Shown here: positions 1 to 10,509 of the stretch, piece after piece | How positions within the stretch are numbered: position 1 is the first letter of the stretch | Layout of the letters: each line of letters begins with the position of its first letter | From: Marinitoga sp. 38H-ov | Lineage (GTDB): Bacteria > Thermotogota > Thermotogae > Petrotogales > Petrotogaceae | Reading direction: 5' to 3' | Length of the DNA stretch: 56,362 bases | NCBI RefSeq assembly: GCF_011057715.1 | Contig: NZ_LNGH01000014.1 | Location: 1-56,362 of the forward strand | The notes under the pieces: generated by a model | Databases searched by the model: none | Told to the model about the DNA's origin: nothing | The model's input: the letters and a program-made list of their open reading frames with translations, nothing else | Program-made: the position numbers and the translations under genes

Positions 1-406
1 TTGATATTATTTTTTTATTCTTGCTTGTGTTAATTATATAATCTGCTATTTCTTCTGCTTTTTCTATTGTCATTATTTTATTTCTCTTTGTTTCATAACA
101 ATATACACAATCAAAATTGCATTGGAAAGTTGGAATTATTGTAAACGTCGCTCGAGAATTATCAAATCGCGCTCTATAATTTCTCATTTTTATTTCTTCA
201 TATTCATTATAATCTTTTTCTATAATATATCCACCATATTTTAATTGTTCGAATAATTCCTTATCAACTATATTCCCTTTTAATGTTTCTTTTATTTTTT
301 GAACATTTTCACGGTTTACTTCTGCTATTGCTCCTGTTCTTAAGTTAACTAATACCGGAACTTTATCTATTTCTAAAAAGTAATTGTAATATGATTCTTT
401 ATACAT
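1..406 (-). CDS. Radical SAM peptide maturase, N-terminal part (cut by window edge)
   Basis: The reading frame opens at an ATG 4 nt after an AGGTGGA ribosome binding site and runs off the window after 135 codons with no stop. Residues 1-85 form a small N-terminal domain of the kind found before the core of SPASM-type peptide maturases. At about residue 100 there is CNFDCVYCY, the CX3CX2C motif that holds the [4Fe-4S] cluster of radical SAM enzymes. The family uses S-adenosylmethionine radicals to modify peptides, often by linking cysteine sulfur to a carbon. It is the last visible member of a minus-strand cassette with a Cys-rich peptide and an ABC transporter, so the likely substrate is that peptide. 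The substrate is inference; the radical SAM call is firm. Confidence 0.85.
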   Translation of the reverse strand, partial: MYKESYYNYFLEIDKVPVLVNLRTGAIAEVNRENVQKIKETLKGNIVDKELFEQLKYGGYIIEKDYNEYEEIKMRNYRARFDNSRATFTIIPTFQCNFDCVYCYETKRNKIMTIEKAEEIADYIINTSKNKKIIS

Positions 407-700
407 TTTTTCCACCTGCTATAATAAAGATTTAGTTTTTATTTATTAATTGTAATAATTTTAACAAAAAATATATATAATATAAATAACGTTAATGTAA
501 ATCTCTCTTTTCTTAAATTTAATAATTTTACTTATTTATTTTATCAAATGATATGTTTTTATTGTTAATTATTTAATTTATATTATACAATATTTGATAT
601 ATTCTCTTTGAGAATGAGGTTAAGAAAATTCAGGAGTTTTTTGTGTTCATTTACAAATTCTATTTTCCATTCTATATATTTTTACTAATATCTTTCAAAT
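407..700. other. AT-rich intergenic region before the partial maturase
   Basis: About 290 bases with no convincing ORF. It contains a small dyad, ATTCTC-TTT-GAGAAT, at about 602-616, and several TATAAT-like hexamers on the minus strand that could give the downstream maturase its own promoter. None has a clear -35 partner. No terminator hairpin is evident after the permease gene. Confidence 0.4.
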
Positions 701-1444
701 CTAATATTTTGGTTCATATTTTCTGAAAAATAGATATCCTATCATAAATATTGTTGTTACCATTAATAATGGTATTATTATTTTCCACAAACTAATATAC
801 ATTATAAATTCTATTCCTTTTGAGGATATTAATTTTCTTGTCATTATATATACAAAATTTAATGGATGATATATTTTATTTTGAACTGGCAATAGGAAAT
901 AACTATATATTACAAATAATGATATTATTATTGAAAATAAGTTATTCTTTACAATTGTATATATCATCATTCCCAATAATGCAGTAAACAATATTGCTAT
1001 TTCATAATTTAAATATGCTACTATTGTTAATGACATCCCTTTTGTATCGGGTTTTCCAATTACTATCATATAGTAATATGTTAATATTATTAGATTATAT
1101 ATACTATATAATGTTGTTATCCAGAATAATGAAATTGATTTTTTTATGTAGAATTTTAATCTTGTATTTTCCATGAATATATATGTGTATAATCTACTTT
1201 CTGTTATTTCATGTAATATTTTTATTCCAAGTATTATTGCTATTAATTGTATTAATCCCATAAAGTTCCACATTGTTCCAAAGTATTTTGCTGCTATTAT
1301 GGATATTGATGGTTTTCCATAATATCCTCTTGCTATCATATAAACTATACCTTTAGCCCTTATTGTTGAAAAGAAATAGTATATTATTAATGATGCTATA
1401 AAAAATTTATCTTTTTTTATCTTTTGTATTTCTGCTTTAATCAA
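701..1444 (-). CDS. ABC transporter permease (ABC-2-like), 247 aa
   Basis: An integral membrane protein with about six hydrophobic segments, starting near residues 14-30, 60-75, 105-130, 145-165, 170-190 and 218-240. It lacks the EAA loop of importers and has the length of ABC-2-type exporter subunits. The start is a TTG whose TTGA overlaps the stop of the upstream ATPase, with GGAGATGG as ribosome binding site, so the two subunits are probably translationally coupled. It should form the membrane part of an exporter with that ATPase. The presence of a Cys-rich peptide and maturases in the same cassette suggests peptide export or self-protection; this role is inferred from context. Confidence 0.8.
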   Translation of the reverse strand: MIKAEIQKIKKDKFFIASLIIYYFFSTIRAKGIVYMIARGYYGKPSISIIAAKYFGTMWNFMGLIQLIAIILGIKILHEITESRLYTYIFMENTRLKFYIKKSISLFWITTLYSIYNLIILTYYYMIVIGKPDTKGMSLTIVAYLNYEIAILFTALLGMMIYTIVKNNLFSIIISLFVIYSYFLLPVQNKIYHPLNFVYIMTRKLISSKGIEFIMYISLWKIIIPLLMVTTIFMIGYLFFRKYEPKY

Positions 1445-2283
1445 TTTTTTCCATCTCCTGATGATATTTTTATAAATGTTTTTCCCAGGATAGATGTATT
1501 TTTTTCTATATCTTTTATTCTTATTCCATATTGTGTGAGTTTTTCCAATGTTTGCATTATATTGTTGCTTTTTATTATTGTTTTACCCTCTTCTATTTTG
1601 TATTCTAACCATTCGGGATATTTCTGTGTTTCTGTAAATATTATATATTCATCATTTTTTTTAAATTCATCTTTTGATAGGATTTTTTTAATTTTTCCAT
1701 CATGTAATATACCTACTCTGTCTGCCATTTCTTTTGCTTCTGATAATACATGAGTGCTTATTATTATACTTTTTCCTCTTTCTTTTAAATCTTCCATTAA
1801 TTTAATGAAGTTTTTTCTTTCTATTGGGTCCAATCCTTCTGTTGGTTCATCAAATATGTATATATCTGGATCTATTAATAGTAATATTGAAACCGCAAGC
1901 CTTTTTTTCATTCCTGTTGAATATTTACCAACTTTCTTTTTTGCATGTTGTTGTATTCCCGTTATTTTTAAATATTTATCCATACTTTCTTTGTTTATTT
2001 TTTTATATATTGATGATGTTATATATTTTATGTTTTCGTATGCATTCATATTTTTCATAAATTGTGGTTCTTCTACAAAACCCAATAGTTTTTTGCCTTT
2101 TTTTATTTTTATTTCACCTTCATCTGGATTATATACTTTTGTTAATATATAAAATAGTGTTGATTTCCCTGCTCCATTTTCTCCTAATATTACAAATTTT
2201 TCCTCTTCTTTTACATCAAAGTTTATTCCTTTTAAAACTTCTTTTTCTTTAAACTTCTTTTTTATGTTTTTTATATCTATCAT
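1441..2283 (-). CDS. ABC transporter ATP-binding protein, 280 aa
   Basis: A complete nucleotide-binding domain. Walker A GENGAGKST lies at residues 34-42, the signature is YSTGMKKR at about 121-128 with STG in place of SGG, and Walker B with DEPTEGLDP falls at about 139-153. The switch histidine is in STHVLSEAKEMADR. About 75 residues follow the core, as in drug, lantibiotic and ABC-2-type exporters (CcmA/NatA class). The ATG follows GGTGGTGA. Its stop overlaps the permease start. It powers the membrane partner encoded next to it, and the cassette points to a peptide as cargo, although a drug or lipid cannot be ruled out. Confidence 0.92.
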   Translation of the reverse strand: MIDIKNIKKKFKEKEVLKGINFDVKEEEKFVILGENGAGKSTLFYILTKVYNPDEGEIKIKKGKKLLGFVEEPQFMKNMNAYENIKYITSSIYKKINKESMDKYLKITGIQQHAKKKVGKYSTGMKKRLAVSILLLIDPDIYIFDEPTEGLDPIERKNFIKLMEDLKERGKSIIISTHVLSEAKEMADRVGILHDGKIKKILSKDEFKKNDEYIIFTETQKYPEWLEYKIEEGKTIIKSNNIMQTLEKLTQYGIRIKDIEKNTSILGKTFIKISSGDGKN

Positions 2284-2388
2284 TTTTTCACCACCAATTT
2301 CAACATTTTTTATATTTTGTATTTCTAAATATTTTATGTTAAAATTATAATGTTTTTTAAAGTTTTTAATAAAAAATATCCATAGGGT

Positions 2389-2403
2389 TGTGGCTGGAAA
2401 AGT
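2389..2403 (+). repeat. Left arm of 15-bp perfect inverted repeat
   Basis: TGTGGCTGGAAAAGT. Its exact reverse complement lies at 2633-2647. The two arms enclose the 65-codon Cys-rich peptide gene and little else. The arms are much richer in G than their surroundings. Confidence 0.9.
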
Positions 2404-2410
2404 AAGTTTA

Positions 2411-2608
2411 TTATTCTGGAATATCTATATTATTACCAGTGCAGTGATCGACATTACATATATCTGTTGGTTTACAATCTCCCAAATCAATAGTAAAACA
2501 ACCATCTGTTAAACTACATGTTCCACCATCATAACCACTACAATAATCTAAAATGCAATTTTCAATTTGGTTATTGCTTTTTAATTTAACAATTTTTATA
2601 TGTTCCAT
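2411..2608 (-). CDS. Seven-cysteine small peptide, candidate RiPP precursor (65 aa)
   Basis: A 65-residue peptide with a Lys/Asn-rich N-terminal leader-like stretch (residues 1-16) and seven cysteines in the remainder, within ENC, DYC, GTC, DGC, GDC, DIC and DHC. There is no hydrophobic signal peptide, as expected for a substrate modified in the cytoplasm and exported by a dedicated transporter. A GGAG element sits 8 nt before the ATG. The seven cysteines and the radical SAM/SPASM neighbours recall the Clostridium Clo7bot-type Cys-rich peptides and other thioether peptides (ranthipeptides, SCIFF). In Thermotoga maritima the Cys-rich peptide TM1316 also lies beside a radical SAM gene and ABC genes. 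Homology to any named family is not proven here. The gene sits inside a perfect 15-bp inverted repeat. Confidence 0.7.
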   Translation of the reverse strand: MEHIKIVKLKSNNQIENCILDYCSGYDGGTCSLTDGCFTIDLGDCKPTDICNVDHCTGNNIDIPE

Positions 2609-2632
2609 AAAGGTTCAACTCCGCTATAAATA

Positions 2633-2647
2633 ACTTTTCCAGCCACA
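2633..2647 (+). repeat. Right arm of 15-bp perfect inverted repeat
   Basis: ACTTTTCCAGCCACA, the exact reverse complement of 2389-2403. The outer ends of the pair are 259 bp apart. It lies upstream of the peptide gene's ribosome binding site, so the arms bracket the whole transcription-translation unit. I see no obvious direct repeat immediately outside the two arms. Confidence 0.9.
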
Positions 2648-2666
2648 GAATTTAAAATTCATATTT

Positions 2667-3938
2667 TTATTCAAGTTTTAATTCATAAACTTCAAATATA
2701 AAAAGATTTTTATCTTCTTTTTTTTCTATTTCGTTTAATACACCATAATACTTATCTTTCATTTTAAAAAAATGTATTGCTTTATTCAAAATTTTATTTA
2801 TGTTACCTGTTTCAAGATTTATTTTATAAATGTTTCCATTAAAAAGAAATATTTCAAATTGATTTTGTAAGTTCAAACTAACTTTAAAAGGTGTATTTGA
2901 ACAGAGAAATATAACATAATCGGATTTTTTTAGTTCTTTTTCCCATAATATTTTAAATTTATTGTCTATTATTTTTCCTAATATTATTTTTGTTGTACTA
3001 TCTTCCTGCACTTCTATTAATATTTTTTCATTTTTATAGGTATAATAATGATAATTTATATTTCCTTCTTTCAAAAATTGATATATTTCTTCCATATTTA
3101 TATTTTCTATTTTATTATTATCAAGATTATATCTTTTTATATTTATTTTTCCCCCATAATTACCAAAATATACATATTTTTCATCTTGATATATATATGT
3201 ATAATAGTTCATATCTGAAAATGTTTTTTCATCTTTTTTTATTAATTCATAGTTTTTTGCATCAAATGTGTGTTTTAACTTTATATATTTACTGTTTGAA
3301 CCAAAAAAAGATGTCACACTTTTTTCTGGTATTGTTTCGAATATATATAGTTTATCTTTATACTTTGCCATTTCTAATATCCCTGAAAAATCTTTTAATG
3401 TTATTAATTCTTTATACCAGTTTAAATCTATATCCACTATCATTACCTTTCGTTCTGATTCATTTATGCCTACACTCATTATTATTTTATCTTTCAATTC
3501 ATAATCGATTGTAGCTGCAAATGACTTTACTCCTAAATTAAGCTTTTTGTTAAATATATATTTTCCTTCTTTTTTTATATATTCATTTATTTCCATATCT
3601 CCATTTTTTTCATTTCCACATATTATCCAGAATTTATTTTCAAATGCATATGTTGTTATTAATGTTGCACCTGTTAAATTATTAATTTCATATAGTGCTG
3701 GAGATTCCTTTTTTATTATTTGTTTTGTATCAGATTTTAATGAATATATTAATATTTCAAATTCTTTTCCTTTTGCAACTATTGGTGTAATTATTACTTC
3801 GTCTTTTGTAAATGATAGAACTGGTTTTATATTTTTTTTGCCGTCCAATTTAATTTTTTTTATTATTGTCAAATTTTCAGAAAGCAATAGAACTGATATT
3901 GCTAACATAAATAAAATCATTAATATATTTCTTTTCAT
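2667..3938 (-). CDS. Secreted protein of unknown function, probably beta-rich (423 aa)
   Basis: I do not recognise the family. Residues 1-20 form a typical signal peptide (MKRN, then a long hydrophobic run) without a lipobox cysteine. The rest alternates short hydrophobic strands with charged turns and recurring patterns such as 'YKDKLYIFE', 'DEKYVYFGNYGG' and 'LFNGNIYKINLETGNINK', which suggests a beta-propeller-like fold. The ATG follows a GGGAG site and lies 4 nt after the stop of the decayed maturase, so the two were cotranscribed. It sits between a maturase and the Cys-rich peptide, so a role in handling, sensing or immunity to that peptide is possible but untested. Confidence 0.6.
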   Translation of the reverse strand: MKRNILMILFMLAISVLLLSENLTIIKKIKLDGKKNIKPVLSFTKDEVIITPIVAKGKEFEILIYSLKSDTKQIIKKESPALYEINNLTGATLITTYAFENKFWIICGNEKNGDMEINEYIKKEGKYIFNKKLNLGVKSFAATIDYELKDKIIMSVGINESERKVMIVDIDLNWYKELITLKDFSGILEMAKYKDKLYIFETIPEKSVTSFFGSNSKYIKLKHTFDAKNYELIKKDEKTFSDMNYYTYIYQDEKYVYFGNYGGKINIKRYNLDNNKIENINMEEIYQFLKEGNINYHYYTYKNEKILIEVQEDSTTKIILGKIIDNKFKILWEKELKKSDYVIFLCSNTPFKVSLNLQNQFEIFLFNGNIYKINLETGNINKILNKAIHFFKMKDKYYGVLNEIEKKEDKNLFIFEVYELKLE

Positions 3939-3942
3939 TTTA

Positions 3943-5170
3943 TCATCTCCCTACTTTTAATTTTTCTACTCCTATTTTTGTTAGGGCGCAAGAAATACTT
4001 CGGCTTTTGCTTTTTGTTAATAATTCATATGGGCATCCACCATCGCATATATTTCTCAATTCGCATAAACCGCAATCTTCTTCTATTTTTTTAACTACTT
4101 TCTTATAAAATTCCTTTTTATAGTTAATAAATTCTTCCCATTGCATCCCCACTTCTCCAAGTTCATAGTCTTTTTCACCTGTGAATCTCTGGCATGGGTA
4201 CATTTTTCCATCTATATCTATTGATACTATTCCCAACCCCGCTCCACATGGATATTTTTTAATTTCTCCTTTTTTTATAGTTTCCCATACTCCACTTATA
4301 TTTAACGGGATAACCTTTTATCTTTTTTTCTATTATTTCTTCAACTTCTTTGTATAATTTTTTCTTTTCTTTTTCTGTCCATTTTTTTGTGTAAGGGTAT
4401 GATGCAATCGCAAAAGAATAGCCACCAACATTTAGCTCTTTTATAAAATGTTCTGCTATTTTTTTAATTTCTATTTTCTGATTTGTTACTGTTGCTCTAA
4501 CGTTTAACTTTTTTCTTTTTTCCAGCATTAACTCTATATTTTCTGCTATTTTTTCATATGATCCCTTTCCTCCAACAAATGTCCTTTGAAAATTTTATAT
4601 ATACTCACAACCATCTATACTTAATGTTAATGAAAAATTTTCTTTGATTAAAAAGTCTATTATTTCTTTATCCATTATCATCCCATTAGTGGTTATTGAC
4701 TATCCAATCTTTTTGTTATATTTCTTTCCTAATTTTTTTGATAATGCCACGCTTTCTTTTATTTTTTTGAATTCAAGTAATGGTTCTCCGCCAAAAAACG
4801 TTATTGTTATTTTTTTCTTTTTTGTATTTGAAAATATATATTCTAAACTTTCTTTTATCAATTTCATATTCATACTTTCTGGTTTCTCTTTATGAGCATA
4901 GCAGTATATACATTCAAGATTAAATGCTTTTGTTATATTTAATATAATATTTGATGGTTCAAATATTATGTCTGAATTATAGAATTTTTCGCTTTCTTTT
5001 ATTTTTTTATTGATTATATTTTTTAATGTTTTTATATCTTTTTCAACATCTTTATTTTTTTTATTTTCTGTAAGATGTGAATAGGCTATTTCATCTAGTT
5101 TGACTAATGTTACACTATCAAGGTCAAATAGATACTTTCTTTTATTATTTTGATAGAGTTTATATTTCAT
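3943..5170 (-). pseudogene. Decayed radical SAM/SPASM peptide maturase
   Basis: Three ORF fragments together make one maturase of about 410 codons. The N-terminal part (5170-4700) carries FNLECIYCYAH, where the first cluster ligand should be Cys but the codon is TTT (Phe), followed by the FFGGEP SAM-binding motif. It is broken by TAG at 4700-4702, within what should read IGYSITTNG. A second in-frame stop (TAA) follows SIDGCEYI near 4590. A frameshift near 4285 then separates the C-terminal SPASM part (YPCGAGLGIVSIDIDG, then the Cys cluster CGLCELRNICDGGCPYE and a last Cys). Two stops, a frameshift and a lost ligand agree on inactivation. Intact homologues install thioether links in Cys-rich peptides. 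Confidence 0.9.
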
Positions 5171-5288
5171 TTTTTTCCTTTCTTTTTAATATTAAAAATG
5201 TATTGTATCATAAAACCTTATATGCTATAATTTAAATGTATTCTACAAATAACTAGTATAAAGCTTTTAGTTTTCATATGATATCTTA

Positions 5289-5423
5289 TTATCCTCTAGA
5301 ATTTTCAATTTGAACTTGAAGATTAGTTGAATGAGTAGTTGAATTACTTTTATCATCACCACCATATACCATTGTTGAAGATAATATTATGATTGCCATT
5401 ATTAATATAATTATTTTTTTCAT
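5289..5423 (-). CDS. Small exported peptide, 44 aa
   Basis: A short ORF with GAGGGGGG as ribosome binding site. Residues 1-20 are a textbook signal sequence (MKK, a long Ile/Leu run, then STMVYG). The presumed mature part is only about 23 polar residues, beginning GGDDKSNS and ending QIENSRG, with no cysteine. A good promoter (TTGACA, 16 bp, TAAGAT) lies just upstream. The length, signal peptide and lack of fold suggest a secreted signalling or antimicrobial peptide. It is unlike the Cys-rich precursor nearby. The divergent gene at 5701 encodes a helical, repeat-like protein that could be its receptor, but this is speculation from position. Confidence 0.6.
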   Translation of the reverse strand: MKKIIILIMAIIILSSTMVYGGDDKSNSTTHSTNLQVQIENSRG

Positions 5424-5700
5424 TTTTCCCCCCTCATTTATCTTAGCATTTCTCATATGACTGTCAAGTGTTTCTTTTGTAGCCTGAAATTAGCTTTTTA
5501 TAAACATTTTAAACTGCAATATCATTTTTAATAAATGGTAATATTTTAGACATATAACTTCAACTTCTGAAATTCTTTATTTTGGATATTTATATATTTT
5601 TAAGTAACTATTATGTAACAAAATGTAACTTAACCTTAATTAAATATCATTCTTTAATTTTTTGTTTCAATATTTATAATTTTTATTTAAGAGGTGTTTT
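5424..5700. other. Divergent intergenic region
   Basis: 277 bases between the 44-aa peptide gene and the plus-strand gene at 5701. Apart from the promoter at 5440-5467 it is AT-rich sequence. The AAGAGGTG ribosome binding site of the 5701 gene is at its right end. No clear terminator or further ORF was seen. Confidence 0.5.
5440..5467 (-). promoter_or_regulatory. Promoter of the 44-aa exported peptide gene
   Basis: On the minus strand TTGACA (5467-5462) is followed after 16 bp by TAAGAT (5445-5440). The predicted start point falls close to the ribosome binding site, giving a very short leader. Confidence 0.6.
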
Positions 5701-7134
5701 ATGAAACATTATTCCTTAAATAAATTAATTGATATTATAGAATATGGAGCTTTTTCTAAACCTATTGTGAATTATATTTTAACTAATACTGAGGATGAAG
5801 ATTTGGTTTATTATCTTTTATGCTTAAAATCCATTTGGAAAAACAAACATAGAGAAGCTTTTAAATATGCCGATCTCGTTACTACTACTACTACTACTAC
5901 TACAATTTTAAATGAACTTGCTACTCTTGAAAAAATTAGTATTTTATTTAATAATAATAAAATTAAAAAAGCTAATATTGAACTAAGTAAGATTAAAAAT
6001 AATATTCAATCTCTTAATAAAAAAGCAAGAAAAATTATTATTCCTGCTTTGAGATTTATGGAAATAAGATTTTCAAATTTAATTGATGAAAATCTTGTTA
6101 GATATTGGAGTGAAGAGTATGAAAGTAGTTATGCACAGAAATCATTATTAAAATATTCTGAAGCCAGAAAATATTTAAATAATAAAGATTTTCATAAAGC
6201 TTTTGATTTATTTATTGAAGGGTTTAATTTTGCAAAAAGGTTTCCTCATCCCACAATGATATGTTCTGGATTGAATAATGCAGCATGGTGGATAAGAGAA
6301 GTAGATAAGAAGAAAGCGTTAATTGCTGCTGATTTATTAGAATATTACATCGGTTATTATTTTGAAGACTTATTTAAAATTTATAATTGGTTTGATACTA
6401 TTTTTGATGTTTTTTTTATTAATAATTATATTGGTTTATATGAAATTTCAAGAATTGTGAATGAATTAAAAAATAATATAAATGTTGATAATAAATTTAA
6501 TAAAGATTTTTATGATCGTTCAAATAAAAAACATATTAGTTTTTTATTTAAGAATAACATTAACCAAATTATGACTATATTTGATCTCAATTTTCCAATA
6601 GTATTTTTAGCAACATATTCATCATTAATAGAAAAACCATATTTTACAAAAAGTCGGATTTTGAAGTTGATTTTTGAAAGAGATAAAGATAAAATCATTA
6701 AATTTTTCTCAAGTAATTATGAGAAGATGTACTTTTTTAATTTAATGCTATCAAATTTTCAAGAAGAAAATTTGATAAATAATATTAATAATAAGAACTA
6801 TGACTTTCTAAAGTCTACCAGAAGTAGTCTATTTTATATCGCGAGAAAAAACTTAATTTTAAAGCTATTAAAGAATATAAGAAATAAAAAAGAATTTATT
6901 GTTCATTATTTTAATTTATCTGATAGCGAAAAAAATATTTTTGATATCTTTTTAAGAAATTGTGTCCGTTACGATATTAAATGGCCTATTATTCCAAAAG
7001 TTGATGGTAATTTGAAATCTTTTGCTTTGAAGTACAATATTACTCAAAAACGAGTTGCTTTAGGATATTATTCTTTTGAAGACAATGAAAGACTTTTTCT
7101 TGATTCTATTATTGAGAAGTTTTTGAAAATATAA
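5701..7134 (+). CDS. Helical, TPR-like protein of unknown function (477 aa)
   Basis: I do not recognise a named family. The protein is almost entirely amphipathic helix and has no signal peptide. Residues 140-240 contain TPR-like pairs such as 'YSEARKYLNNKDFHKAFDLFIEGFN', split here only by description. Residues 62-69 are eight consecutive threonines encoded by a run of ACT triplets. The last 40 residues (FALKYNITQKRVALGYYSF...) could be a helix-turn-helix-like end, but this is weak. ATG follows AAGAGGTG. It is divergent from a small secreted peptide gene, an arrangement seen for TPR receptors of peptide pheromones (RRNPP family). However, the N-terminal HTH of that family is absent, so the function is open. 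Confidence 0.6.
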   Translation: MKHYSLNKLIDIIEYGAFSKPIVNYILTNTEDEDLVYYLLCLKSIWKNKHREAFKYADLVTTTTTTTTILNELATLEKISILFNNNKIKKANIELSKIKNNIQSLNKKARKIIIPALRFMEIRFSNLIDENLVRYWSEEYESSYAQKSLLKYSEARKYLNNKDFHKAFDLFIEGFNFAKRFPHPTMICSGLNNAAWWIREVDKKKALIAADLLEYYIGYYFEDLFKIYNWFDTIFDVFFINNYIGLYEISRIVNELKNNINVDNKFNKDFYDRSNKKHISFLFKNNINQIMTIFDLNFPIVFLATYSSLIEKPYFTKSRILKLIFERDKDKIIKFFSSNYEKMYFFNLMLSNFQEENLINNINNKNYDFLKSTRSSLFYIARKNLILKLLKNIRNKKEFIVHYFNLSDSEKNIFDIFLRNCVRYDIKWPIIPKVDGNLKSFALKYNITQKRVALGYYSFEDNERLFLDSIIEKFLKI

Positions 7135-7224
7135 ATTTTATTAAGTTTCCTAAAATTTTTTGTGTAATATTAATGGTCAAACTATTTTAGTAGATGTTGG
7201 ATTGTCAAAATTCCCATTATAATC

Positions 7225-7253
7225 AAAAAGAGAAGCAGTATGCTTCTCTTTTT
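7225..7253. terminator. Bidirectional terminator hairpin
   Basis: AAAAAGAGAAGCA, a GTA loop and TGCTTCTCTTTTT form a 13-bp stem with U-runs on both strands. It serves the iron-transporter operon on the minus strand, whose last stop overlaps it, and possibly the plus-strand gene ending at 7134. Confidence 0.85.
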
Positions 7254-7902
7254 ATGTATATATTTCTTCGGGAATGCCAGTGAATGTTATTTTTCCATTT
7301 TCTATAATGATAATTCTATCTGCCAAAGCGAGAGCGTCGTTCCTATCATGCGTAACTAAAATAGTAGTAATTCCTGCTTCATATAATATTTCTTTTAAAT
7401 CATTTCTTATTTTATCTTTTAGTATTTCATCTAAATTACTAAATGGTTCGTCCAACAATAGTAGCCTCGGATTAGTAGCAAGAGTTCTCGCAAGAGCTAG
7501 TCTTTGTTGTTGACCACCACTTAATTCATATGGATATCTATTTTCATATCCTTCCAAATTTACTAATTTCAACATTTCTTGCGTTTTACCTTTTTTTGCA
7601 AATTCTATATTTTCTTTTACTGTCATATGAGGAAATAAAGCATAATCCTGAAAAACAAAACCTATATTTCTTTTTTCAGGCAATACAAAATGTTTTTTAG
7701 AAGTCAATACTTTATCTTCTAATCTAACAATTCCTTTTTGTGGTTTTTCAAACCCCGCAATTATTCTTAAAATAGTACTTTTACCACTTCCGCTTTCTCC
7801 TACTATAGCTACAGTTTCACCTTTTTTTATTTGGAAATCAATTCCTTTTAATATATATTCTTTATCGTATTTAAACCAAATATCTTCTAGATATAAAAAC
7901 AT
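7252..7902 (-). CDS. fbpC: Ferric iron ABC transporter ATP-binding protein (FbpC-type), 216 aa
   Basis: Walker A GESGSGKST is at residues 35-43, the Q-loop at VFQDYALFPHMTV, the signature LSGGQQQRLALART at 127-140, and Walker B with DEPFSNLD at about 147-158. The switch His is in VTHDRNDALALADR. At 216 residues it has only the nucleotide-binding domain; classical FbpC/PotA proteins of about 350 residues carry an extra C-terminal regulatory OB-fold region, which is missing here. The ATG shares bases with the stop of the permease gene. It energises import of the ligand bound by the protein encoded at 9490-10509. Confidence 0.9.
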   Translation of the reverse strand: MFLYLEDIWFKYDKEYILKGIDFQIKKGETVAIVGESGSGKSTILRIIAGFEKPQKGIVRLEDKVLTSKKHFVLPEKRNIGFVFQDYALFPHMTVKENIEFAKKGKTQEMLKLVNLEGYENRYPYELSGGQQQRLALARTLATNPRLLLLDEPFSNLDEILKDKIRNDLKEILYEAGITTILVTHDRNDALALADRIIIIENGKITFTGIPEEIYT

Positions 7903-9488
7903 TATTTATCATCTCCTGTTATCTTTCGCAAAATCATAATAAATATAAATATGATAATTATTATTGTTAATGAAGCGACTGAAGCTTCATGTATCATTTC
8001 ATCATTTGCATATTCAAATACTTTTGTAGCTAATGTATCAAAATTAAATGGTCTAAGTATAAGCGTTAAAGGTAATTCTTTTATTATCTCAATAAAAGAA
8101 AAAATGAATGCACTAATAATAGCAGGTTTAATCATAGGAACATCTACTTTTAAAAATGTATAGAAAAAAGATTTTCCTAAACTTCTTGAAGCTTCATGAT
8201 AACTTTTACCATTTTTTTCAAAATTTGCATCTATTGGACTATATGCAATATTTAAAAATCTAACAATATATGCATATATTAACATTAATATCGAAGAAGA
8301 TAATAATAATTTTGTTCTTAATCCTAATAGATTATATAATGGGTATAAACTTTTATCTAAGTTTATAAAAAATACTATAACACCTACTGCAATTACTGCT
8401 CCTGGTATTGAATATCCCATAGTTGCTAATTTTGATAATATCTTTGAGTTTTTTCTGCTAAATCTTATAGTATCAGAAATAATTAAAGCTGTAATTATTA
8501 TTAATATTGCACTAATAAAAGAAATAAATAAGGAATTAAAAGTTAATTCTAAAAATTTTATATTTGTATTTTTATATGAAAATATACTCCATTGTATTAA
8601 TTGCATTACTGGTAATAAAAAAGATAATAATATTACAATAACATAAAAAGACATTACAAAAAACAACTGTATTCCTTTCAAACTCCTTCTTTTTATAGGT
8701 TTCTTATTTTTAGTAAAATACGATCTATTTTGCCTTAAATATTTTTCTAAAGATAATATTATAAAGACAAATAATAACATTACAGCCGATAATTTAATAG
8801 CCGTATTAATATCTCCTAATGAAAACCATGCTTTAAAAATACCTGTACTAAATGTTGGTATACCAAAATACTTTACAACACCATAATCATTTAAAACTTC
8901 CATAAGTACAAGGCTAGTCCCGCCAACAATAGCGGGTCTAGCCAAGGGAAGAATTATTTTAAAAAATGTTGTTAGAATGTTTTTACCTAAAGATTGAGAT
9001 GCTTCAATAATCCCTGTAATTTGCTTTGAAAAAAAAGATTTTACTGTTAAATATATATATGGGAATAAGAATATTGAGAATATAAATACTGCACCTGGAA
9101 TTGACATTATATCTAATAAATATGACTTACCTTTAAATTCAGTATATTTCATTAAAAAGGTTTGTATAGTACCTGTATAACTTAACATACCTGCATATAC
9201 ATATGCTCCTATAAAAGGTGGTATTGTTAATGGTAAAACTAATGCCCATTCAATTGCTTTTCTATATGGAAACTCATAATAACTAACAAACCAAGCACTT
9301 AATACACCTAATATAGATGAAAGTATAGCTGTTCCAAATATTAATTTCAAAGAATTAATAACATAATCTTTTAATAAATAATCATATATATGTTTCCAGT
9401 TTTGATTAGAAGGCAAAATTAAATTATATAAGACTATAAATATTGGTATAGAAATAATCAAAACTAAAAGAAACGTTGTCTTTTTCAT
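7902..9488 (-). CDS. fbpB: Ferric iron ABC transporter permease (FbpB-type), 528 aa
   Basis: A fused two-domain permease with about 12 membrane segments. Each half contains a binding-protein-dependent transport domain with an EAA-like loop: 'EASQSLGKNILTTFFKIILP' in the first half and 'EASRSLGKSFFYTFLKVDVP' in the second. This duplicated architecture is typical of the FbpB/SfuB ferric permeases. The gene begins one base after the binding-protein stop and overlaps the ATPase start, so the three genes form one operon. Confidence 0.92.
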   Translation of the reverse strand: MKKTTFLLVLIISIPIFIVLYNLILPSNQNWKHIYDYLLKDYVINSLKLIFGTAILSSILGVLSAWFVSYYEFPYRKAIEWALVLPLTIPPFIGAYVYAGMLSYTGTIQTFLMKYTEFKGKSYLLDIMSIPGAVFIFSIFLFPYIYLTVKSFFSKQITGIIEASQSLGKNILTTFFKIILPLARPAIVGGTSLVLMEVLNDYGVVKYFGIPTFSTGIFKAWFSLGDINTAIKLSAVMLLFVFIILSLEKYLRQNRSYFTKNKKPIKRRSLKGIQLFFVMSFYVIVILLSFLLPVMQLIQWSIFSYKNTNIKFLELTFNSLFISFISAILIIITALIISDTIRFSRKNSKILSKLATMGYSIPGAVIAVGVIVFFINLDKSLYPLYNLLGLRTKLLLSSSILMLIYAYIVRFLNIAYSPIDANFEKNGKSYHEASRSLGKSFFYTFLKVDVPMIKPAIISAFIFSFIEIIKELPLTLILRPFNFDTLATKVFEYANDEMIHEASVASLTIIIIIFIFIMILRKITGDDK

Positions 9489-9489
9489 A

Positions 9490-10509
9490 TTATTTCCATC
9501 CTGCTTTATCCATTATTTCAACAGCTTTTGAATTATACTCACCTAATAATGTCAAATCTATACCTTGTGGCTCAAAACTACCAAATGATTTTAAAAATTC
9601 TGATGGTTCTACCTCAGGATTTGCAGGATATTCATAATTTGCTTCAGCATATAATTCTTGTGCATCTTTACTTGTTAAAAATTCCAATAATTTAATAGCA
9701 TTTTCTTTATTTTTTGCATACTTTACTACTCCAGCCCCACTAACATTTATATGTGTTTTTTCTGGAAAGTGTAATTTAACTTTTTTAGCAGCTTCTATTT
9801 GCTGAGGATCAGAAGAATTTAACATTTTACCCATATAATATGTATTTATAACGGCAATATCTCCTTCACCTGCTGCAACACCAATTACTTGAGCCCTATC
9901 ATTTCCTTGTGGCTCTCTAGCCATATTTGCTACAATTCCTTTAGCCCAATTATATGCCCATTCTTCACCATATATAGCAATGAAAGAAGCTACTAAAGAT
10001 TGATTGTATATATTTGAAGAAGATCTAATTAATATTCTTCCTTTCCATTCAGGATTTATTAAGTCACCATATGTTTTTATTTTAGAAATATCTACTCTTT
10101 CTGGTGCATATGCTAATACTCTCGCGCGCATTGTTAATGCATACCAATAATTATCTCTATCTCTTAATTTATTAGGAATGTTTTTAACCAATATATCTGT
10201 TGCTACAGGTTGTAATAATCCCATTGTTTTTGCTCTATGTAATCTACCAACATCTGCAGTAATAAATAAATCTGCGTTTGTATCCTCTCCTTCATTTTTT
10301 ATTCTCTCTATTAATTCATCTTCTCCAGCTTTAATTACATTAACTTTGATTCCAGTAACCTTTGTAAATTCATCATATAACTTTTGATCAGTATCATAAT
10401 GTCTACTAGTATATACATTTACTTCTCCACCTTGACCATACCCAAACATACCTGCAAAGATATTTAATGAAACTAATACTAAAGTAATAATAACGGCAAA
10501 CTTTTTCAT
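9490..10509 (-). CDS. fbpA: Ferric iron-binding periplasmic protein (FbpA/FutA-type), 339 aa
   Basis: A signal peptide (MKKF then a hydrophobic run to about residue 19) precedes a solute-binding fold beginning 'EVNVYTSRHYDTDQKLYDEF', a hallmark of the ferric-binding FbpA/FutA/IdiA group. The paired tyrosines in INTYYMGK match the iron-ligand tyrosines of the family, and a further Tyr lies in the YTSRHY motif. The length matches the family. It is the first gene of the operon and captures Fe(III) for the permease and ATPase. An imperfect palindrome over the -10 region suggests metal-dependent repression. Confidence 0.9.
   Translation of the reverse strand: MKKFAVIITLVLVSLNIFAGMFGYGQGGEVNVYTSRHYDTDQKLYDEFTKVTGIKVNVIKAGEDELIERIKNEGEDTNADLFITADVGRLHRAKTMGLLQPVATDILVKNIPNKLRDRDNYWYALTMRARVLAYAPERVDISKIKTYGDLINPEWKGRILIRSSSNIYNQSLVASFIAIYGEEWAYNWAKGIVANMAREPQGNDRAQVIGVAAGEGDIAVINTYYMGKMLNSSDPQQIEAAKKVKLHFPEKTHINVSGAGVVKYAKNKENAIKLLEFLTSKDAQELYAEANYEYPANPEVEPSEFLKSFGSFEPQGIDLTLLGEYNSKAVEIMDKAGWK

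What the first reader, a model, noticed from the sequence alone, without database searches (positions are those of the whole stretch)
1..5423. Candidate RiPP locus with a seven-cysteine peptide, two radical SAM maturases and an ABC exporter
Seen directly: a Cys-rich 65-aa peptide without signal sequence, an ABC ATPase/permease pair, a radical SAM protein cut by the window edge and a second, decayed radical SAM/SPASM gene, all on one strand. Known: SPASM-type maturases install thioether links in Cys-rich peptides such as SCIFF, ranthipeptides and Clo7bot-type. Inferred: this is a modified-peptide system, perhaps a bacteriocin or signal. A T. maritima locus with Cys-rich peptide TM1316 has a similar composition, but this peptide's cysteine spacing and the secreted 423-aa partner may be distinct.
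Basis: partly seen in the sequence, partly recalled or inferred. Interest (0 to 1): 0.75.

Follow-up and report, generated by a model that had tools for sequence, protein, structure and literature searches.

The report
Decayed RiPP cluster under peptide-signal control
A hot-vent bacterium (Marinitoga) carries a modified-peptide gene cluster whose tailoring enzymes have broken; beside it sits what looks like an unreported peptide-signalling switch, found across the phylum, that controls many such clusters.

Summary
A 7-Cys, 65-aa peptide, an ABC ATPase/permease pair, a secreted 423-aa protein and two radical SAM genes lie on the minus strand of window 1-5423. The RiPP reading is supported by a Marinitoga relative (G004) with the same cluster intact. 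Its maturase is PapB-like (ranthipeptide type), not Clo7bot or SCIFF, and each of the seven Cys has its own acidic residue at CX2-5D/E. In this genome the PapB-like gene has two stops and two 1-base deletions, and the other radical SAM gene is truncated, so the cluster probably does not work as it stands.

The larger find is next door. The operon begins with a 44-aa exported peptide facing a 477-aa regulator whose family (TPR; many with a central HTH) was found in 55 of 91 Thermotogota genomes. Of regulators, 40/60 have such a divergent mini-peptide; of other genes 3/524, and those 3 are regulators too. A conserved promoter occurs 28 times in Marinitoga, always at this cassette or at its RiPP/ABC operons, and a related one 46 times in sister genera. 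Best reading: an RRNPP-like pheromone/receptor system, outside Bacillota, controlling RiPP clusters. Peptide binding and modification chemistry are inferred, not shown.

The parts
2..415 (-). N-terminal 138 aa of a Clo7bot/TIGR04463-like radical SAM gene, cut by the contig edge; truncated a little further on in contig C48 (same in G001). Belongs to a second RiPP module.
701..1444 (-). ABC-2-type permease, 247 aa; relative to G004 a 1-base insertion puts the original ATG out of frame and leaves a TTG start
1441..2283 (-). ABC transporter ATPase, 280 aa (bacteriocin/lantibiotic-exporter-like, below all curated cut-offs)
2411..2608 (-). RiPP precursor peptide, 65 aa, 7 Cys, each with its own Asp at CX2-5D (four are CX3D)
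   Evidence: homologue L025:9802-10011
2667..3938 (-). 423-aa exported partner protein, found only in Marinitoga; low-confidence all-beta model; occupies the slot of an S41 peptidase or beta-propeller protein in related clusters
3943..5170 (-). Pseudogene of a PapB-like radical SAM/SPASM maturase (two in-frame stops at 4702-4700 and 4597-4595, two 1-base deletions); intact 409-aa orthologue in G004
5289..5423 (-). 44-aa exported peptide, candidate pheromone precursor (signal sequence, then tail ending NLQVQIENSRG), first gene of the operon
5440..5504 (-). Promoter/operator-like element of the mini-peptide/RiPP operon; core CTTGACAGTCATATGAGAAATGCTAAGAT at 5440-5468, by far the best hit in the window to the family motif
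5701..7134 (+). 477-aa divergent regulator/receptor candidate of a Thermotogota-wide TPR(-HTH) family; this copy lacks the central HTH and carries a (ACT)n poly-Thr run

Best explanation
The locus is a PapB-like (ranthipeptide-type) RiPP cluster in decay. In its intact form (G004), a radical SAM/SPASM enzyme would form thioether links between the seven Cys and nearby Asp of the short precursor, an ABC-2 transporter would export the product, and an exported beta-rich protein would act on it or protect from it. Expression is most likely gated by a peptide-signalling cassette at the head of the operon: a Sec-exported 41-53-aa pro-peptide, transcribed from the same promoter as the RiPP genes, and a divergently encoded TPR-type regulator that senses the processed, re-imported peptide and switches that promoter (an autoinducing loop like Rgg/SHP of streptococci). 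Shown here: gene content, intact relative, lesions, conserved pairing, conserved promoter and its restriction to these operons. Inferred: modification chemistry, peptide processing and import, receptor binding, direction of control. In this genome both maturases are broken, so at most the signalling half is likely to work.
For: RiPP half: intact orthologous cluster in G004. Its maturase scores best with NCBIfam PapB (E 6e-78, 262 bits), and the nearest solved structure by sequence is PDB 5wgg (E 4e-30). 7/7 Cys have a private acidic residue at n=2-5 (P=0.0015 against shuffles); PapB accepts CXnD with n=0-6 (PMC9413430). PapB-like enzyme + Cys/Asp-rich peptide + exported partner (+ ABC) recurs in L185, L186 and L188. 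Lesions. Control half: regulator family in 55/91 Thermotogota genomes and 31/36 genera. Divergent exported mini-peptide beside 40/60 regulators against 3/524 other genes, those 3 being regulators missed by the first list. Promoter motif at 28 distinct Marinitoga sites, 0 in the reversed control, all at the cassette or at RiPP/ABC/secreted-partner operons; related motif at 46 sites in sister genera, 0 in the control. TPR and HTH signatures in the family; weak structural matches include PlcR and RapI. Radical SAM gene divergent from 16 of 28 Marinitoga regulators and present at 22 of 40 regulator loci outside the genus.
Against: The G004 maturase is below the PapB equivalog cut-off (262 of 340 bits). 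The CXnD pattern is significant only for this peptide family; the other Thermotogota peptides near PapB-like enzymes do not stand out from shuffles. The window regulator lacks the HTH, so it cannot bind DNA in the usual way. No Pfam TPR model hits the window copy itself; the AF2 model is poor (pLDDT 49) and no Foldseek hit has E below 0.001. Some regulators have no detectable peptide, or sit by transporters without a radical SAM gene. No expression data.
Confidence: 0.66

Rival explanations
1. An ordinary RiPP cluster in decay; the 44-aa exported peptide is a second small product (for example an unmodified bacteriocin or envelope peptide) and the divergent protein its immunity or housekeeping partner, not a receptor.
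For: The peptide gene lies in line with the biosynthetic genes and has a signal sequence; the window regulator lacks an HTH.
Against: Relatives carry Cro/C1-type HTH matches; the promoter is conserved across genera and also precedes RiPP operons that lack the mini-peptide (L158, L169); peptides are short, acidic and variable except for the tail.
Confidence: 0.2
2. The promoter is switched by another DNA-binding protein (for example the HTH-bearing paralogue) and HTH-less copies such as the window's are Rap-like modulators or allelic competitors that only bind peptide or partner.
For: HTH lost or eroded in the RiPP-linked Marinitoga subfamily while the C-terminal half stays conserved (A3); RRNPP families also contain HTH-less members (Rap; own knowledge).
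Against: The HTH-bearing paralogue is broken in this genome (L079) though promoter and cassette persist.
Confidence: 0.35
3. The Cys-rich peptide is a metal-binding or disulfide peptide, not a radical SAM substrate.
For: Seven Cys; no experimental data either way.
Against: No signal sequence, lies in line with a maturase gene and an ABC-2 transporter, regular Cys-Asp pattern, and a similar gene set recurs in other Thermotogota.
Confidence: 0.1

Closest known systems
PapA/PapB freyrasin (ranthipeptides)
   Same: Radical SAM/SPASM maturase best matched by the PapB model; precursor rich in CX3D, all Cys-Asp spacings within the tested PapB range (PMC9413430)
   Different: Below the PapB equivalog cut-off; seven Cys with mixed spacings; an exported 423-aa partner; maturase broken in the window genome
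Rgg/SHP-controlled RaS-RiPP loci of streptococci (PMC12445099)
   Same: Radical SAM RiPP operon beside a TPR-type regulator gene and a short exported peptide; several such loci per genome
   Different: Thermotogota, not Bacillota; HTH central or absent instead of N-terminal; 41-53-aa peptide with an ordinary signal sequence; no homology to a known RRNPP family was detected
RRNPP quorum-sensing systems as defined in PMC10075063
   Same: Small exported pro-peptide next to a TPR receptor gene, also inferred there to control biosynthetic clusters
   Different: That survey covered Firmicutes, plasmids and phages; the present receptors are mostly 440-607 aa and unrecognised by Pfam/NCBIfam as a family
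Thermotoga maritima TM1316 locus (from memory; paper PMC3811502 not held)
   Same: Cys-rich peptide with radical SAM and ABC genes in the same phylum; a comparable locus was seen in G056 (L185)
   Different: In L185 the exported partner is an S41 peptidase, and no regulator of this family was found in G056

Membership tests
PapB-type ranthipeptide cluster | Maturase passes the PapB equivalog model (NF047865) | tested here: not met
   Best-scoring model, but 262 of 340 bits for intact G004 enzyme
PapB-type ranthipeptide cluster | Precursor with repeated Cys-Xn-Asp/Glu motifs | tested here: met
   7/7 Cys one-to-one with acidic residues at n=2-5, P=0.0015
PapB-type ranthipeptide cluster | Thioether from Cys S to Asp C-beta | not testable with these tools
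   Needs mass spectrometry
Clo7bot / SCIFF / CLI_3235 RiPPs | Precursor matches the family model | tested here: not met
   No NCBIfam match for the peptide at E<=1
RRNPP quorum sensing (five criteria of PMC10075063) | Small pro-peptide | tested here: met
   44 aa in window; 41-53 aa in most relatives
RRNPP quorum sensing (five criteria of PMC10075063) | Pro-peptide exported by Sec | tested here: inconclusive
   Clear N-terminal K + hydrophobic stretch + A/G site by pattern; SignalP not available
RRNPP quorum sensing (five criteria of PMC10075063) | Receptor about 250-500 aa | tested here: met
   477 aa in window; many relatives 520-607 aa
RRNPP quorum sensing (five criteria of PMC10075063) | Receptor has TPR repeats | tested here: inconclusive
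   TPR_12 in 7/27 members, weak; none in window copy; helical-pair model with TPR matches, E>0.001
RRNPP quorum sensing (five criteria of PMC10075063) | Receptor and pro-peptide genes adjacent | tested here: met
   Divergent, 277 bp apart; 40/60 regulators against 3/524 controls, those 3 also regulators
RRNPP transcription factors (Rgg, PlcR, PrgX, ComR) | N-terminal HTH | tested here: not met
   HTH_26/HTH_3 in the middle (about 280-345) of long members, absent from window copy
RRNPP quorum sensing | Peptide binding after re-import | not testable with these tools
   Needs binding and uptake assays

The most novel reading that the evidence does not exclude
A Thermotogota-wide peptide pheromone/receptor family, independent of the known Bacillota RRNPP families (central or lost HTH, Sec-exported 41-53-aa pro-peptide, dedicated conserved promoter), that switches batteries of radical SAM RiPP and ABC operons in hot-environment diderm bacteria.
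Probability: 0.55. Interest if true: 0.85.

Novelty: new variant of a known kind. Interest (0 to 1): 0.72.

Why it matters
Intracellular-receptor peptide quorum sensing is described for Bacillota and their mobile elements; no paper in the searched library reports it in Thermotogota, and a 2018 survey by homology found no further peptide systems in thermophiles beyond T. maritima (PMC6022435). A phylum-wide cassette with a recognisable promoter predicts which RiPP clusters are switched on together and by which peptides, and makes cell-cell signalling at high temperature directly testable. It also shows a RiPP cluster decaying while its signalling cassette persists, as might be expected for a social trait open to cheating.

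Tried and rejected
Clo7bot/SCIFF/CLI_3235 assignment of the peptide: no model match. Peptide homologues beyond Marinitoga: the other hits have E above 0.001; two were inspected (L026, L029) and lie among unrelated genes. Genome-contig scan with the peptide found nothing; a broad regulator alignment had no conserved stretch to search with; the genus alignment found Marinitoga lauensis loci, many frameshifted. Regulator in plasmids and phages: none. AF2 of the 423-aa protein (pLDDT 44) and of the regulator (pLDDT 49) too weak for fold claims. C-terminal identity of the window and G004 mini-peptides (QVQIENSRG) first looked like allele matching, but the flank is shared by descent up to about 5260, so it is not evidence of specificity. 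The TM1316 paper is not held.
Full report
Setting. The window is a complete contig (C14) of a 2.26-Mb, 56-contig genome. All seven fetched genomes of the genus carry the regulator family described below.

The observation. The peptide is MEHIKIVKLKSNNQIENCILDYCSGYDGGTCSLTDGCFTIDLGDCKPTDICNVDHCTGNNIDIPE. G001 carries the same locus at 99.4% identity, with the same broken maturase. G004 carries an intact version (L025) in the order 44-aa exported peptide, 409-aa radical SAM/SPASM enzyme, 427-aa exported protein, 69-aa Cys-rich peptide, ABC ATPase, permease. Behind it lies a second module with two radical SAM enzymes, a second Cys-rich peptide and another ABC pair. The radical SAM gene at the window edge belongs to that second module. 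It is truncated in both G000 and G001, where it runs into the tail of another radical SAM gene.

What the cluster would make. The G004 enzyme is best matched by the PapB model (262 bits, cut-off 340) and by PDB 5wgg. PapB links Cys to Asp or Glu in CX3D motifs and accepts CXnD with n=0-6 (PMC9413430). In the window peptide all seven Cys can be paired one-to-one with an acidic residue at n=2-5; shuffles of the same residues reach this in 0.15% of cases (0.3% for the G004 peptide). With a wider spacing the support is weaker (P about 0.012), so I treat the chemistry as likely, not settled. PapB-like enzyme, Cys/Asp-rich small peptide and large exported protein, with ABC genes in two of three, recur in L185 and L186 (exported S41 peptidases) and in L188 (beta-propeller matches). 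The 423-aa protein seems to fill that slot; its own model is poor but all-beta.

State of decay. Against G004, the window maturase is 98.6% identical but has in-frame stops at 4702-4700 and 4597-4595 and two 1-base deletions. The permease has lost its in-frame ATG through a 1-base insertion (read). The rest of 1-5250 is mostly 93-100% identical to G004, except two sharply bounded islands: the precursor (2401-2700, 78%) and the N-terminal part of the 423-aa protein (3601-3900, 69-79%). dS is 0.63 for the precursor against 0.03 for the ATPase. Precursor and partner N-terminus therefore look exchanged by recombination, as expected if they act as a matched pair (inference). Another PapB-like gene lies elsewhere in G000 with an open frame of 406 aa (C22, 34% identity), so action in trans cannot be excluded.

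The regulator next door. The divergent 477-aa ORF has no Pfam or NCBIfam match. Its family occurs in 55 of 91 Thermotogota genomes and 31 of 36 genera, with 4-22 matches per genome in this genus (fragments counted apart). It was not found in plasmids or phages. Members elsewhere show TPR and Cro/C1-type HTH signatures (best HTH_26 E 4.5e-7 in L112, above its cut-off). The HTH lies in the middle, not at the N-terminus, and is deleted in the window copy and eroded in its closest paralogues.

The exported mini-peptide. Upstream of most regulators, in divergent orientation and at a stereotyped distance, is a 41-53-aa ORF with a signal sequence and a short tail. Under fixed criteria 40 of 60 regulators have it against 3 of 524 other genes; the 3 exceptions (L139, L189, L191) are regulators that were not on the list (L139 and L189 tagged, L191 lies at a regulator position). 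In Marinitoga the tail follows GD...T.S.NPQIQ.E.SE; in the best-sampled sister genus it is ...PTEIVSVVEEVE.

A shared promoter. Aligned upstream regions gave two adjoining motifs. With up to 3 mismatches they occur at 28 distinct places in seven Marinitoga genomes and never in the reversed control. Every place is at a regulator/mini-peptide cassette or directly before a radical SAM, ABC or 423-aa-type gene. Some sites precede RiPP operons with no mini-peptide and no regulator next to them (L158, L169), which is what a regulon would look like. The window element (5440-5504) is a divergent copy, yet the best hit in the whole window by a wide margin. In sister genera a related core (TTGAAAAYCATATGG...TATGAT) occurs 46 times, control 0, and 23 of 30 inspected sites are beside a regulator. 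The window's CTTGACAGTCATATG core is shared with L095 from another genus. Calling the element a promoter rests on its resemblance to -35/-10 boxes only.

Link to RiPP clusters. A radical SAM gene is divergent from 16 of 28 Marinitoga regulators and lies in 22 of 40 fetched loci outside the genus (two of these matches are weak). Others sit by ABC or MFS-like transporters.

Mechanism. By the five published criteria for RRNPP systems (PMC10075063) the cassette meets three clearly and two with reservations (Sec signal by pattern only; TPR weak by sequence). It fails the N-terminal HTH feature of the RRNPP transcription factors. I therefore say it works like an RRNPP system, not that it is one. The proposed loop: low basal transcription gives mini-peptide; it is exported, trimmed and re-imported; receptor plus peptide raises activity of the shared promoter, and with it RiPP genes and more peptide. 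The weakest step is how an HTH-less receptor acts; Rap-like action through a partner is the main alternative.

Known or new. RiPP-like clusters in Thermotogota have been reported (Petrotoga mobilis, PMC3132745; Thermosipho melanesiensis, PMC4289311), and RaS-RiPPs under peptide control are known in streptococci (PMC12445099). I found no report of this regulator/peptide family; only one held paper contains both 'RRNPP' and 'Thermotog', a review of phage-plasmids. Most subscription papers are not held, so this is not proof of novelty.

Noticed in passing
window 5881-5904: The regulator carries a pure trinucleotide run (ACT)7ACA coding 8 Thr; G001 has 7, paralogues 4-10, nearly always pure ACT or pure ACA and only in the RiPP-linked Marinitoga subfamily: an in-frame microsatellite that may tune the protein.
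   Followed up: partly
window 2401-2700 and 3601-3900 against L025: Two sharply bounded divergence islands (precursor, and N-terminus of the 423-aa protein) in otherwise nearly identical DNA, suggesting joint exchange of a matched pair.
   Followed up: partly
window 5260-7200 against L025 and L064: The regulator and 5' part of the mini-peptide gene were swapped between clusters: the window copy is 95% identical to a regulator beside a different RiPP cluster in G004.
   Followed up: partly
L185, L186, L188: PapB-like enzyme + Cys/Asp-rich peptide + exported S41 peptidase or beta-propeller protein, with ABC genes in L185 and L186: a recurrent Thermotogota RiPP architecture; L188 has two precursor/partner copies.
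   Followed up: partly
L031:6008-8116 and L073:10320-12494: Another Marinitoga RiPP family with several Cys-rich precursors (many with a CPCKG-like motif) around a TIGR04463-like radical SAM enzyme.
   Followed up: no
G004:C1 about 2376958-2385099 (L066, L025): Two copies about 6.3 kb apart of the same mini-peptide and broken regulator, each by a different radical SAM gene.
   Followed up: no
L210:1501 onwards: In a sister genus the cassette precedes a 52-aa peptide (..ACGALCVAACAIACMVDG..) that may be of the thuricin-CD-like kind reported from Petrotoga in 2011.
   Followed up: no
window 7252-10509: ABC transporter (ATPase, fused permease, binding protein) that looks like a ferric-iron uptake system.
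   Followed up: no
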